Source: a candidate division TA06 bacterium SM23_40
GTDB taxonomy: Bacteria > LJUI01 > SM1-40
DNA length: 13,275 nt
Direction of reading: 5' to 3'
NCBI GenBank assembly: GCA_001303705.1
Contig: LJUI01000067.1
Coordinates: 1-13,275, forward strand
In this document: one piece after another, positions 1 to 5,701 of the stretch
Numbering within the stretch: position 1 is the stretch's first letter
How the letters are laid out: each line of letters opens with the position of its first letter
Position numbers and translations under genes: made by a program
The notes under the pieces: generated by a model
Databases searched by the model: none
Seen by the model: the letters and a program-made list of their open reading frames with translations, nothing else
What the model was told of the DNA's origin: nothing

Positions 1-283
<283 letters not shown>

Positions 284-483: not shown

Positions 484-2475
484 CTAGTGCTCGGAGGATC
501 GTTGGACGATGGTGTACTTCGCCTCGCGGGCAAAGGGTCGGAAGATCGTCCCTCCTGCCTCGTAGAACTTCGGAAAGAACTCGACAAACTGCAGCCTGAG
601 TGTGTGGACGAATGCCCCCAAGACATTGATCGCCAGGTTGAAATGATGCGCCCCGATAAGGACGATTGCAGCGAGCACGATGCCGACGATCGGAATGTCC
701 CCGATCATACCGGCGATAGTGTTGAAGGCCATCGCGATCCCCGCCGTCACCATGCCCAGTGCCATGAGTCGGACATAGGAGAGTGTATCTCCCACGAATC
801 CTGTCAACCCCATGTAGAAGTTGATCCCACCCATTATTATCCTGAACACCGGATTGGGCTCCTCGCGTGCGCTGAAGATGAGCGCGCTCAGCATGCCGAG
901 AAACGCCACTGCGAAGAACGGTCGGGCAAGCGACTCCGGCAGGAGGCCGACAAGTGCCAGCACTCCAAGCAGAATGCTGTTTATGAGGACGATCCAGGTG
1001 AGCGGTCCGAAGAGGGTGTCCTGGAGCCGTCTCTGCCTGAGAGTATCGTAGAGCTCGATGACGCGGCCGAACATGCAATGTATATATCCCAATCCCACTG
1101 AGATGCCGAAGAAGACCATCGGGGTCTCGAAGGGATCGAACAGTCGTAGACGATTGCGCATGATCTTCAGGAAGCCAAACGGAAGACGGTCGATTGCATC
1201 CCCGAACCAGCCGCCGGTAATGGCTCCCATGACGACAGTGGCAGCTGCGCCCCAGAGCAGGAGCTTGAGAAGCTTCGGGTCGCCCTGTACCTTCCGCATG
1301 AGAAGGAAGACGAGGAACGCGAGAAGAATGCCGTATCCCGCATCGGTGAGACAGAGGCCGAAGAAGAGAGCGAAGAAGGGTGCGAGGAACGGTGTTGGAT
1401 CGAGTTCTCGCTGGTGCGGCATCCCGTACAGTTCGGTGACGACCTCAAATGGACGAACAGGGGACCGATTGCTGAGGACGGTAGGGGGTCTCTCGCCCGG
1501 CTCGGGGTCGATCTTCGTGAGAGAGACGTGGGGAAATCGTTCGGCCGATCGCTCGAGCCTGGAATAGGTGCTCTGCGGAGTCCAGCCAACGATGAGGGCC
1601 GATTCGCGTGTACTGAGCGCGAGATTCTGGATACGCCTCTGATTGAGACGACTCTGGTAATGGTCGTGGAGGATCTTCAGTGTCGGGAGGTTATCGGCGA
1701 GTTCGAGAGCCGTTGCATTGAGTTTCTCACGCTCTTCATCGATCTCCTGGAGCTGGGCCTCGTAGTCTGCGAGCAGTTCGCGAGGGTTGCCTACCAGATC
1801 GTGTGCGGCGAAGTCGATCCGTTCGAATTCGACGGCGGCCAGGGCCTCCTCTACCGGATCCTTGTTCGTCGCCGGAAAGCAGACGATACAGTGGGTGGAC
1901 TCAGGGGTCCGCTCGATGACCTCGATGTGCACAGGAAGATCGGCAACCGAGCTCAGGAGGCGATCGATGCCTCCCGCCTCGGGGACGACTCCGGGGAGGA
2001 TCGTGGTATGAGGCGTTGATGCGACCTGTTCGAGTGGCACATCGAGCGTTCTCCAGGGCAGCAGGAATTCCATCTGGGCGTGCAGGTGCGTCTCTCTGCT
2101 ACGCAGCTCTGCATGGCTCCTCTCAAGGGCTCGCGACGCATCTATGACGGGTGCAGGATCGTGTTCGGATATCGTATGCTCGAGCGTCTGTTCATCAAGC
2201 ACTGCTCTCGCGCCCAGAAAGCCCTGGAGAAACCCCTCGCTTGGCCCGAACTGGCTGAGGCTGCCGATGGTCCAGGCAAGCTGGGAACAGAGCTCCTCGA
2301 GGGATTCGTCCGTGATCTCCTCTTCCGCGACAAGGTCGGGGAAGTCCTCGGCGAGCGGACTCTCTCGGAGGTCAGAAATGTGAAGGAGCCCGTCATTCTG
2401 GAGCTGGCGAACGAGCTCCTCCTGGTCGCTGCGGTGAGCCAGCAGGCTCACCTTCTGCATTGGAACGATGCTCAT
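484..2475 (-). CDS. ntpI: V/A-type ATPase subunit I (membrane stator, a-subunit type)
   Basis: This stator subunit forms the ion half-channels against the K ring. The 663 residues fit the family (about 640-660). The start MSIVPMQKVSLLAH matches the usual N-terminus of the family, though its ribosome binding site is weak; it begins 6 bases after the subunit H stop, so translational coupling is likely. Residues 1 to about 345 form the cytosolic part with coiled-coil segments near 230-285. Hydrophobic segments follow from about 361 to the end, starting with FLAPFFALFFGLCLTDAGYG. The conserved helix GDTLSYVRLMALGM carries R569 and the last helix carries R627 (HTLRLQFVEFF). These are the positions of the two arginines that face the ion-binding glutamate in this family. 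The C-terminus FYEAGGTIFRPF is typical. The gene is intact and the call is firm. Confidence 0.97.
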   Translation of the reverse strand: MSIVPMQKVSLLAHRSDQEELVRQLQNDGLLHISDLRESPLAEDFPDLVAEEEITDESLEELCSQLAWTIGSLSQFGPSEGFLQGFLGARAVLDEQTLEHTISEHDPAPVIDASRALERSHAELRSRETHLHAQMEFLLPWRTLDVPLEQVASTPHTTILPGVVPEAGGIDRLLSSVADLPVHIEVIERTPESTHCIVCFPATNKDPVEEALAAVEFERIDFAAHDLVGNPRELLADYEAQLQEIDEEREKLNATALELADNLPTLKILHDHYQSRLNQRRIQNLALSTRESALIVGWTPQSTYSRLERSAERFPHVSLTKIDPEPGERPPTVLSNRSPVRPFEVVTELYGMPHQRELDPTPFLAPFFALFFGLCLTDAGYGILLAFLVFLLMRKVQGDPKLLKLLLWGAAATVVMGAITGGWFGDAIDRLPFGFLKIMRNRLRLFDPFETPMVFFGISVGLGYIHCMFGRVIELYDTLRQRRLQDTLFGPLTWIVLINSILLGVLALVGLLPESLARPFFAVAFLGMLSALIFSAREEPNPVFRIIMGGINFYMGLTGFVGDTLSYVRLMALGMVTAGIAMAFNTIAGMIGDIPIVGIVLAAIVLIGAHHFNLAINVLGAFVHTLRLQFVEFFPKFYEAGGTIFRPFAREAKYTIVQRSSEH

Positions 2476-2481
2476 CGCTTG

Positions 2482-2793
2482 CTATCCAACGGTCTTCTTC
2501 TCTATCGCCGAGAGGGCGTCTTTCAATCTCTTTGCCGCCATCTCGTCCAGTTTCGCGCACTCCTCGGCATTCGCGCGCTTCATCTCTTCGATGGCCGCTT
2601 CGGCAGCAGCACGTCCCTTCTCTCTCGCGTCTGCGAGGCGAGGCTTTCTCCGTGCGGCCTCTTCTCTGAGGAGTTTTCGCGCCTCCTCTTCGGCCTCCTC
2701 GATGTGGGCTTTCGCCTTGGCCTCAGCCCCCTTGATGATTTCGTCGGCTTTGCGTTCTGCTGCCTGGATCTGTTTCAGGAACTCCGTACTCAC
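2482..2793 (-). CDS. ahaH: V/A-type ATPase peripheral-stalk subunit H (AhaH / NtpF type)
   Basis: This is one strand of the coiled-coil peripheral stalk, which pairs with subunit E and holds the catalytic head against rotation. The 103 residues are almost all charged helix: Lys/Glu/Ala-rich from residue 1 to 99 with heptad-like spacing, no cysteine except C79, and a single proline (P51). Length and composition fit the AhaH family (about 105 residues). I chose the GTG at 2791-2793 because AGAGGA lies 5 bases upstream. The longer in-frame reading to 2871 would run through the promoter and the Rex operator. It is the first gene of the operon, as in archaeal aha operons, which supports the family call despite low sequence complexity. 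Expression is probably controlled by the Rex site at 2819-2836. Confidence 0.85.
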   Translation of the reverse strand: MSTEFLKQIQAAERKADEIIKGAEAKAKAHIEEAEEEARKLLREEAARRKPRLADAREKGRAAAEAAIEEMKRANAEECAKLDEMAAKRLKDALSAIEKKTVG

Positions 2794-2818: not shown

Positions 2819-2836
2819 ACGTGAACTTCTTCACAA
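2819..2836 (-). promoter_or_regulatory. Rex operator of the V/A-ATPase operon
   Basis: On the minus strand the site reads TTGTGAA, GAAG, TTCACGT. The known Rex consensus is TTGTGAA-N4-TTCACAA, so 12 of 14 half-site bases match. The half-sites are identical to those of the site in front of rex itself (4100-4117). It lies 26 bases upstream of the subunit H start codon and about 10-27 bases downstream of the predicted transcription start, where a bound repressor would block RNA polymerase. With high NAD+ relative to NADH, Rex should bind and repress; rising NADH should release it. Confidence 0.85.
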
Positions 2837-2852
2837 CCACGCATCGGCGTTT

Positions 2853-2881
2853 CTTGTACCACATATCCCACTACCAGTCAA
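2853..2881 (-). promoter_or_regulatory. Promoter of the V/A-ATPase operon
   Basis: The minus strand has TTGACT (2876-2881, five of six), a 17-base spacer and TACAAG (2853-2858, four of six). The predicted start is near 2846, giving a leader of about 50 bases that contains the Rex operator. No better promoter was seen between here and rex. Confidence 0.65.
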
Positions 2882-3377
2882 CCCTTTTTTGGGCCCGGTT
2901 CGCGCTGTTCTGGCGCTAATCGAGGAGGTCGGGGGCGTAACTGTGCTGAACATCACGCTGCCCGGCTCGTCGGGCCGCCGCCGTGGAAATGGAGGTGGAT
3001 AAGGTGTGGAGAAGTCGTCGATGGTCGTGGGAAAAGGTCGTTCTTCGGCCCCCGGGCAGAGCATATCTAATGACCGTCCGGTGGATAACCTGTGACTATC
3101 ATGGCGGCATCGTCTTGTCTATGCACAGCACGCGGGCAGGCAGTGGCTCTCCTGATGAGTTCTTACTCCCGGGGAGCTCCATCAGCACGCGGGCAGGCAG
3201 TGGCTCTCCTGATGGGTTCTTGTCCCCGGAATCCTCCATCCCCTTCGGGGCGTCCGGTGAGCACGCCGTCAGGGAGGATCAAGCAAGCGGTGGGCAGGTG
3301 CGTCCCCGGGCAGGTGCCGGGCCTGCAATGGAATATGGTGAGTACAGCTGTGCGTATTGAGTGGGCCTGATCCTCAC
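2882..3377. other. Intergenic region between rex and the ATPase promoter
   Basis: About 500 bases with no convincing gene. The open frames here lack a ribosome binding site, have odd composition and match no family I recognise. It holds a 57-bp direct repeat (3127-3240), a small CCCC-TTC-GGGG hairpin (3240-3250) with no T tract, a 10-bp repeat GGGCAGGTGC (3294 and 3308), and three sequences one base away from the DnaA box (2994-3002, 3005-3013, 3080-3088). A clear terminator for rex was not found. Confidence 0.6.
3127..3240. repeat. 57-bp direct tandem repeat, two copies
   Basis: Copy 1 is 3127-3183 and copy 2 is 3184-3240, directly abutting. The first 31 bases of each (AGCACGCGGGCAGGCAGTGG and the next 11) are identical; the second half has drifted at several positions, and both end in CTCCATC. 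A possible remnant of a third copy starts at 3260 (AGCACGCCGTCAGG). The period is a multiple of three, but the plus-strand frame through it shows no other sign of being a gene. Confidence 0.85.
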
Positions 3378-4010
3378 CTAGCGGCGCGTTCGATTCTTCG
3401 TCATGACGTAGGACAGGGTCTCCAGCTCCATCGCCATATTGACGTTCCTTAGGGTCACCCCGTCTGGCACAAAGAGCTTGCGGTGCGCAAAATTGAGTAT
3501 CGCCTTGATTCCAGCATCTACCATGGCATTTGCCACAGATTGTGCCGTGTCCGCCGGTACGGCGATGACGCCGATATCGACTTTGCGCTGCCTGACTATG
3601 GACTTCATATCGTCGGGGTGGTCGATCTGCACGTCAGCCCAGTGCTTGCCGACCTTGTGACGATCACTGTCGAACACGGCCACGATATGGAAGTTGCGTT
3701 TCCTGAATTCCTTGTACGAGAAGAGGGCGCTGCCCAGTCGCCCTGCGCCGACGAGGGCAACTCGCCAGTCGCGGTCGATGCCGAGGATCGAGGTGATTTT
3801 CGAGATCAGATCTGCCACCAGGTAGCCCTTTCCCTTGGTGCCGAACGTCCCGAAGCAGGAGAGGTCTCTCCGGACCTGCGCAGGAGTCGCGCCAGCCCGT
3901 TGGGCCAGTTCATGGGAAGAGATGTACTCTTTGCCCTCGTTCGCGAATTCGGAGAGAAGCCGATGATAGCTTGAGAGCCGGTGAATGGTCCAGTCTGACA
4001 CTTTCTGCAA
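3378..4010 (-). CDS. rex: Redox-sensing transcriptional repressor Rex
   Basis: Rex is a homodimeric repressor that senses the NADH/NAD+ ratio: NADH releases it from DNA. From the start chosen the protein has 210 residues, the usual Rex length. Residues 1 to about 75 form the winged-helix DNA-binding domain, with ISSHELAQRAGATPAQVRRD (30-49) and the wing FGTFGTKGKGY. Residues from about 82 form a Rossmann NAD(H) domain with VALVGAGRLGSAL (85-97). The last helix, typical of domain swapping in the dimer, contains ELETLSYVM. The start is probably TTG (4008-4010): GGAGG lies 7 bases upstream, and MQKVSDWTIHRLSSY matches the known Rex N-terminus. An upstream GTG at 4115 would place the operator inside the gene and add 35 atypical residues. 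An operator in its own promoter indicates autoregulation. The call is firm; the start codon is likely. Confidence 0.96.
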   Translation of the reverse strand: MQKVSDWTIHRLSSYHRLLSEFANEGKEYISSHELAQRAGATPAQVRRDLSCFGTFGTKGKGYLVADLISKITSILGIDRDWRVALVGAGRLGSALFSYKEFRKRNFHIVAVFDSDRHKVGKHWADVQIDHPDDMKSIVRQRKVDIGVIAVPADTAQSVANAMVDAGIKAILNFAHRKLFVPDGVTLRNVNMAMELETLSYVMTKNRTRR

Positions 4011-4099: not shown

Positions 4100-4117
4100 A
4101 CGTGAATCTTTTCACAA
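4100..4117 (-). promoter_or_regulatory. Rex operator in the rex promoter (autoregulation)
   Basis: The minus strand reads TTGTGAA, AAGA, TTCACGT, matching 12 of 14 half-site bases of the Rex consensus. It starts 8 bases downstream of the -10 box, so it covers about +2 to +19 of the transcript, a classic repression position. It lies 89 bases ahead of the TTG start of rex. Its half-sites and flanks (GTTGTGAA and TTCACGTA) are the same as at 2819-2836. Confidence 0.87.
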
Positions 4118-4125
4118 CCCAGTCA

Positions 4126-4155
4126 AATCTAGCACAGAATCGGTTTCCATGTCAA
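4126..4155 (-). promoter_or_regulatory. Promoter of rex
   Basis: The minus strand has a perfect TTGACA (4150-4155), an 18-base spacer and TAGATT (4126-4131, four of six). The predicted start near 4119 abuts the Rex operator. The leader to the TTG start is about 110 bases. Confidence 0.7.
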
Positions 4156-4665
4156 TAGCGAGTGTCAAATTCCTGGTGTGCGCGGCCGCCGCCGGCGGCT
4201 TCCGGCAAGGGGGCGTGTTCGTGGTGGGTCCGATCCCGAGGCGTGCTGGGGCCCGTTGCATCTGTGCAGTCATGAACGAGAGGAGGCTGAACAAAGGGAA
4301 GGTGATGGGGATCCGTTTTTGCGCGCATCAGAAAGCGTCCGGGGTAGGAGCTGGATGTGGGCGGGGATCCGATCGGGTAAGCGTCAGGACAGGGACCCGA
4401 TCCGCGGGGGGACCGGATCTGGAGGGAGACTCAGTCCGGGCGGGAACCAGGCACATACGGGGGTCGGAACCATGGGTGGATCGGGATCGTGGGTGGACGG
4501 GGGCCGTGGATGGACGGGCTCGTCGATGGACCGGTACCGCGGATGTATCTGAACCGTTGATGGGCCGGCATCGTGGATGGACCGGGATCGTGGGTGGACC
4601 GGGACCGCGGATGTACCTGAACCGTAGATAGACCAAATCCAGGGAGGAACTAGATCAGACAGGAA
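4156..4665. other. Intergenic region between archease and rex
   Basis: About 510 bases without a supported gene. The right third (4477-4665) is the 17-bp tandem repeat. The rest (4156-4476) is GC-rich, with GGATCCGATCGGG and GGACCGGATC-like words that may be decayed repeat units. Frames through it exist on both strands, but their proteins are Arg/Gly/Pro-rich translations of the repeat, so I do not call them. No terminator for archease is clear. Confidence 0.6.
4477..4645. repeat. 17-bp tandem repeat with 68-bp higher-order period
   Basis: Ten units run head to tail with almost no gaps. Starts are 4477, 4494, 4511 (16 bases), 4527, 4544, 4561, 4578, 4595, 4612 and 4629. The consensus is close to TGGACCGGGATCGTGGA. 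Units 4-5 (TGGACCGGTACCGCGGA, TGTATCTGAACCGTTGA) recur as units 8-9 (TGGACCGGGACCGCGGA, TGTACCTGAACCGTAGA), so a block of four units (68 bases) was duplicated. Two more related steps, GGAACTAGATCAGACA and GGAACTAGATG, run into the archease stop codon. The period is not a multiple of three, which argues against coding. Confidence 0.9.
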
Positions 4666-5446: not shown

Positions 5447-5701
5447 ATGGAGGAACTGGAGATAGGGAAGGTCGAGGATTATTTTGCCAAGATCGGGGTC
5501 GCGGGGATTCAGCTTACTGGCGAGATCGCCGTCGGAGACACGATTCACATCAAGGGCCATACGACTGATCTGACCGAGATGGTGATGTCGATCCAGATTG
5601 AACACGAATCGGTCGAACGCGCTGGGTCGGGCGATCTTATCGGCATCAAGGTGAGTGATAGGTGTCGCCAGGGGGACCACGTCTACAAGGTGATCGAGTA
5701 G
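5447..5701 (+). CDS. Translation elongation factor-like protein (EF-Tu domain 2-like barrel)
   Basis: An 84-residue stand-alone beta-barrel resembling domain 2 of EF-Tu-type GTPases. The signature runs from GKVEDYFAKIGVAGIQLTG through IAVGDTIHIKGHTTD to VERAGSGDLIGIKVSDRCRQGDHVYKV. The G domain is absent, so it cannot bind GTP by itself. Such short proteins are widespread in archaea and anaerobic bacteria as conserved proteins of unknown role. A strong AGGAGGAGG stands 8 bases before the ATG. It opens a run of five same-strand genes; the next start is 39 bases on. Family recognition is good. The biological role is unknown, and binding to RNA or a ribosomal partner is only a guess from the fold. 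Confidence 0.85.
   Translation: MEELEIGKVEDYFAKIGVAGIQLTGEIAVGDTIHIKGHTTDLTEMVMSIQIEHESVERAGSGDLIGIKVSDRCRQGDHVYKVIE

What the first reader, a model, noticed from the sequence alone, without database searches (positions are those of the whole stretch)
2819..2881. Rex operator directly in the control region of a V/A-type ATPase operon
The sequence shows TTGTGAA-GAAG-TTCACGT about 10-27 bases downstream of the predicted start of the ahaH-ntpI-ntpK transcript. Rex is known to control fermentation, respiration and cytochrome oxidase genes. Control of a V/A-type rotary ATPase in a bacterium with its own rex next door is a much less familiar target. It implies that ATPase synthesis rises when NADH accumulates. 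That would make sense if the enzyme uses ATP to hold an ion gradient in reducing conditions, or makes ATP when a reduced chain feeds the gradient.
Basis: partly seen in the sequence, partly recalled or inferred. Interest (0 to 1): 0.75.

Follow-up and report, generated by a model that had tools for sequence, protein, structure and literature searches.

The report
Redox switch on a rotary ATPase
A bacterium from a poorly sampled lineage carries a well-formed binding site for the NADH sensor Rex in the promoter of its V/A-type rotary ATPase genes, next to the rex gene itself, so it probably makes more of this ATPase when NADH builds up; Rex is a familiar switch, but this type of ATPase seems to be a new target for it.

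Summary
Window 2819-2836 (minus strand TTGTGAAGAAGTTCACGT) is a Rex operator with 2 mismatches to TTGTGAAN4TTCACAA. It lies 25 nt before the start codon of ahaH and just downstream of a promoter-like TTGACT-17-TACAAG. A near copy sits at the promoter of rex, 1.28 kb upstream. The genome has 8 sites with at most 2 mismatches; about 2.2 are expected and a reversed-pattern control gives 0. Six lie upstream of redox/energy genes (a typical Rex regulon), two in coding sequence. No CRP/FNR helix-turn-helix was found, so the main look-alike binder is unlikely. No F-type catalytic subunit was found, so this V/A ATPase appears to be the only rotary ATPase in the ~90% complete assembly. Rex control of a rotary ATPase is not new: Streptomyces avermitilis Rex represses its F-type operon. 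A V/A-type target was not found in the papers held, and the site was absent upstream of subunit I in about 105 other genomes (at least 62 with Rex). No phylum-mates are held, so conservation could not be tested. Verdict: a credible, lineage-specific new member of the Rex regulon; binding is untested.

The parts
2819..2836 (-). Rex operator of the V/A-type ATPase operon, TTGTGAAGAAGTTCACGT on the minus strand
2853..2881 (-). Likely sigma-70-type promoter of the ATPase operon: TTGACT (2881-2876), 17 nt, TACAAG (2858-2853) preceded by TG
   Evidence: read from sequence; weak -10, not listed by the consensus scan
2482..2793 (-). ahaH (ATPase peripheral stalk G/H-like subunit), GTG start with AGAGGA ribosome-binding site at 2804-2799
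   Evidence: position before ntpI, coiled-coil-like composition, weak Pfam V-ATPase_G_2 (E 0.0038, below cut-off)
484..2475 (-). ntpI: V/A-type ATPase membrane subunit I (a)
   Evidence: Pfam V_ATPase_I E 4.8e-19; NCBIfam V-type ATP synthase subunit I E 3.4e-108
2..259 (-). ntpK: rotor ring subunit K, first hairpin only (contig ends)
   Evidence: Pfam ATP-synt_C E 6.1e-14; NCBIfam V-type subunit K
3378..4010 (-). rex, likely TTG start at 4010 (mechanical ORF extends to 4115)
   Evidence: Pfam Put_DNA-bind_N and CoA_binding; NCBIfam Rex E 3.2e-79; 39-41% identity to Rex of known structure
4100..4117 (-). Second Rex operator, TTGTGAAAAGATTCACGT, in the rex promoter (autoregulation)
4126..4155 (-). 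rex promoter: TTGACA (4155-4150), 18 nt, TAGATT (4131-4126), extended -10

Best explanation
The site is a genuine Rex operator. When NAD+ dominates, the Rex dimer made from the neighbouring gene binds about +11 to +28 of the ahaH-ntpI-ntpK transcript and blocks RNA polymerase. When NADH rises, NADH-bound Rex leaves the DNA and transcription of the V/A-type ATPase operon increases, together with rex itself and a small set of redox genes (thiolase/3-hydroxybutyryl-CoA dehydrogenase, Hdr/NuoEF-type complex, RnfB/Hdr cluster, P5C-dehydrogenase-like gene). Because this appears to be the only rotary ATPase of the cell, Rex more likely tunes its level than switches it off. Shown here: the sequence, position, genome-wide pattern, Rex identity, ATPase identity. 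Inferred: binding, repression, NADH response, joint transcription of H-I-K with the C-F-A-B genes on another contig, and the physiological purpose.
For: Site with 2 mismatches and matching site at rex. Genome-wide, 8 sites at <=2 mismatches against 0 for the reversed pattern and 2.2 expected; six lie upstream of redox/energy genes and two inside coding sequence. All six share GTGA in the left half and CAC in the right half. Rex keeps most DNA-contact residues listed for T. maritima Rex (R12, S33, Q46, R48, S52, G58, G61, Y64; conservative K49R and R60K) and the NAD-contact Y100 and D115. The operator sits just downstream of the -10 at ahaH, rex and the thiolase operon, a repressor position. 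HTH_Crp_2 absent from the assembly but found in all 14 controls. Precedent for Rex on an F-type ATPase operon.
Against: No binding or expression data. The ahaH promoter has a weak -10 and is not listed by the scan. The site was not seen upstream of subunit I in about 105 other genomes including the 38-42% identical homologues, and no close relative is held. The residue that pairs with Tyr in the NADH form (Asp191 of T. maritima Rex) is Asn here, although the best-matching solved Rex (3wg9) has His there. The RnfB-cluster site is weaker and lies upstream of its promoter.
Confidence: 0.8

Rival explanations
1. The palindrome is bound by a CRP/FNR-family protein, whose consensus TGTGA-N6-TCACA is contained in the Rex operator.
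For: The sequence TGTGA-N6-TCACG fits a CRP-type site by eye.
Against: No HTH_Crp_2 domain was found in the 90% complete assembly, against hits in all 14 control genomes. The inner A/T bases of Rex sites are mostly kept in the six sites. The same palindrome sits at rex. The site lies downstream of the -10, unlike a typical CRP activator site.
Confidence: 0.05
2. The palindrome is a chance match or a decaying site with no role in ATPase expression; rex alone is autoregulated.
For: About 2.2 sites of this quality are expected by chance in the genome, and two of the eight do lie in coding sequence. Distant relatives lack the site.
Against: About 0.0003 expected in a given 400-nt upstream region. 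Position between promoter and start codon, and adjacency to rex with the same site.
Confidence: 0.1
3. Rex binds but the ATPase operon is mainly read from another promoter (for example read-through from rex or a distal start in the 584-nt gap), so the site has little effect.
For: rex and ahaH run the same way with 584 nt between them and no terminator-like hairpin found in the gap. The sole rotary ATPase could hardly be shut off completely.
Against: A usable promoter lies exactly ahead of the operator, and a bound Rex could also act as a roadblock to upstream transcription.
Confidence: 0.2

Closest known systems
Rex control of the F-type ATP synthase operon atpIBEFHAGDC in Streptomyces avermitilis (PMC5355995)
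   Same: Rex operator (TTGTGATACGGTTCACGA, also 2 mismatches) in the promoter of a rotary ATPase operon; shown by EMSA, ChIP, footprint and rex deletion.
   Different: F-type enzyme in an aerobe; operator overlaps the -35 rather than lying after the -10; rex is in a different operon, with hem genes.
Rex regulons of fermenting bacteria with thl-crt-hbd, Rnf and hydrogenase targets, e.g. Caproicibacterium lactatifermentans (PMC9600882)
   Same: Predicted Rex sites at the rex operon, thiolase-hbd and Rnf genes, matching several targets here.
   Different: That organism has a V-type ATPase but its published table of Rex targets does not list it; the motif used there is the clostridial TTGTTAA variant.
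Rex of Thermotoga maritima and Thermus (solved structures)
   Same: About 40% identity over the whole of Rex with conserved DNA and NAD contacts.
   Different: Asn replaces the Asp that pairs with Tyr in the NADH-bound T. maritima form.

Membership tests
Rex repressor | N-terminal winged helix Put_DNA-bind_N plus C-terminal Rossmann NAD-binding domain | tested here: met
   Pfam PF06971 and PF02629, NCBIfam Rex E 3.2e-79
Rex repressor | Conserved DNA-recognition residues and NAD-contacting Tyr/Asp | tested here: met
   Alignment to three structural Rex sequences; Y134, D149, R82, Q80, G92, G95, Y98 kept; conservative R83 for Lys
Rex repressor | NAD+/NADH-dependent DNA binding | not testable with these tools
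   needs purified protein
Rex operator / Rex regulon member | TTGTGAAN4TTCACAA-like palindrome in the promoter region | tested here: met
   2 mismatches, 25 nt before the start codon, after the promoter
Rex operator / Rex regulon member | Same motif at rex and other redox genes of the genome | tested here: met
   six sites at redox/energy genes; reversed-pattern control 0
Rex operator / Rex regulon member | Conservation of the site in related genomes that keep the operon | tested here: inconclusive
   no phylum-mates held; absent in about 105 distant genomes
V/A-type ATPase operon | Subunits I, K and catalytic A, B of V/A type | tested here: met
   I and K in the window; C, F, A, B in order on contig C17; joint operon inferred across a contig break
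CRP/FNR site | A CRP/FNR-family protein in the genome | tested here: not met
   HTH_Crp_2 absent from the assembly, present in 14 of 14 controls

The most novel reading that the evidence does not exclude
In this lineage rex and the V/A-type ATPase operon form one module in which the NADH/NAD+ ratio directly sets the amount of the cell's only rotary ATPase, coupling redox state to ion-gradient/ATP conversion; a Rex target of this ATPase type has not been reported in the papers searched.
Probability: 0.6. Interest if true: 0.5.

Novelty: new member of a known kind. Interest (0 to 1): 0.4.

Why it matters
Rex is known to match respiration and fermentation to the NADH/NAD+ ratio. If it also sets the level of a V/A-type ATPase that is the cell's sole rotary ATPase, the machine converting between ATP and ion gradient is itself under redox control, in a bacterium with Hdr/NuoEF-type electron-transfer enzymes under the same switch. 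It can be tested with one purified protein and one DNA fragment. It also extends to the V/A type what is so far shown for the F type.

Tried and rejected
A genome-contig scan with subunit I found only two distant homologues. Phylum searches around this genome and around three of the nearest homologues gave only 1, 4, 8 and 9 genomes. A first scan of relatives took the wrong flank for some loci and was redone with orientation corrected. Two apparent sites elsewhere were rejected: L109 in a 32% GC region lies at a ribosomal-protein-L28-like gene overlapping a TATAAT and is not kept in two genomes of its genus; L031 lies in coding sequence. Sites with 3 mismatches in this genome that I read fall in open frames; about 34 are expected by chance and 59 are found (51 of them with exactly 3 mismatches). 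A guess that Caproicibacterium Rex targets its V-type ATPase was checked and not supported. The main comparative survey of Rex regulons (Ravcheev 2012) is not held, so absence of a V/A-type precedent is not proven.

Full report
Setting. The window is the whole of contig C9 of a 2.88 Mb, 189-contig genome, about 90% complete, the only held member of its phylum. On the minus strand it carries rex (3378-4010), a 584-nt gap, then ahaH (2482-2793), ntpI (484-2475) and the first hairpin of ntpK, where the contig ends. Contig C17 begins with subunits C, F, A and B of a V/A-type ATPase in the usual order, so a single operon broken by the assembly is likely but inferred. Only three ATP-synt_ab proteins were found: V/A-type A and B, and Rho. 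No F-type catalytic subunit was found.

The site. Minus-strand TTGTGAAGAAGTTCACGT at 2836-2819 has two mismatches to the Rex consensus. It follows TTGACT-17-TACAAG and precedes the GTG of ahaH by 25 nt. The rex promoter, TTGACA-18-TAGATT, is followed directly by TTGTGAAAAGATTCACGT. The two 21-nt stretches are 86% identical.

Is it more than chance? Genome-wide there are 8 places with at most two mismatches, 0 for the reversed pattern and 2.2 expected from a first-order Markov model. Two of the eight lie inside long reading frames. The other six lie upstream of ahaH, of rex, of a metallo-beta-lactamase-fold/thiolase/3-hydroxybutyryl-CoA dehydrogenase operon (perfect match), of an Hdr-type flavoprotein with NuoE- and NuoF-type subunits, of an RnfB-like/Hdr cluster, and of an L-glutamate-semialdehyde-dehydrogenase-like gene cut by a contig end. 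For some of these the true start codon was judged by eye, because the mechanical reading frames run further upstream. The set reads like a Rex regulon. The RnfB site is the weakest: it lies upstream of its promoter.

Who binds it? The neighbouring Rex is 39-41% identical to Rex proteins of known structure and keeps the main DNA contacts (Arg12, Ser33, Gln46, Arg48, Ser52, Gly58, Gly61, Tyr64 in T. maritima numbering, with Lys49 to Arg and Arg60 to Lys; Lys43 and Glu34 are not kept) and the NAD contacts Tyr100 and Asp115. Asp191, which pairs with Tyr100 in the NADH form, is Asn here. The CRP consensus resembles the Rex operator (own knowledge), but no HTH_Crp_2 domain was found in the assembly, while it was found in all 14 control genomes.

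Mechanism. From established Rex biology (PMC8836258), NAD+-bound Rex holds the operator and NADH releases it. With the operator just after the -10, Rex would block initiation or early elongation. High NADH would thus raise ATPase synthesis along with enzymes that use NADH or handle low-potential electrons. Since no other rotary ATPase was found, graded control is more likely than on/off. Whether the ATPase then makes ATP or pumps ions cannot be told from the sequence.

Comparison. In S. avermitilis Rex directly represses the F-type ATPase operon (EMSA, ChIP, footprint; PMC5355995), so control of a rotary ATPase by Rex is known in kind. I found no report of a V/A-type target in the library, but the main comparative survey is not held. 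Upstream regions of subunit I in about 105 other genomes, at least 62 of them with a Rex-type domain, showed no convincing Rex site, including the nearest homologues at 38-42% identity. This covers only operons that begin near subunit I. The link thus looks lineage-specific.

Verdict.

Noticed in passing
window 3126-3240: Two tandem copies of a 57-nt unit (86% identical) in the non-coding gap between rex and ahaH; no Rfam match.
   Followed up: partly
window 4473-4634: GC-rich minisatellite-like array of 17/34-nt units (TGGATGGACCGGGATCG) upstream of rex.
   Followed up: no
window 5447-5701: 84-aa stand-alone protein resembling the EF-Tu domain 2 beta barrel (Pfam GTP_EFTU_D2, E 0.00078, below cut-off), between archease and a DUF498 protein.
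   Followed up: no
L073 5553-5570 (contig C124 35552-35569): Perfect Rex consensus TTGTGAAAAAGTTCACAA upstream of a metallo-beta-lactamase-fold/thiolase/hbd operon.
   Followed up: yes
L070 2998-5499 (contig C171): RnfB-like protein encoded directly ahead of HdrC- and HdrB-like genes, with a weak Rex site about 175 nt upstream.
   Followed up: partly
whole genome G000: No HTH_Crp_2 domain protein found although all 14 control genomes have one; the assembly is about 90% complete.
   Followed up: partly
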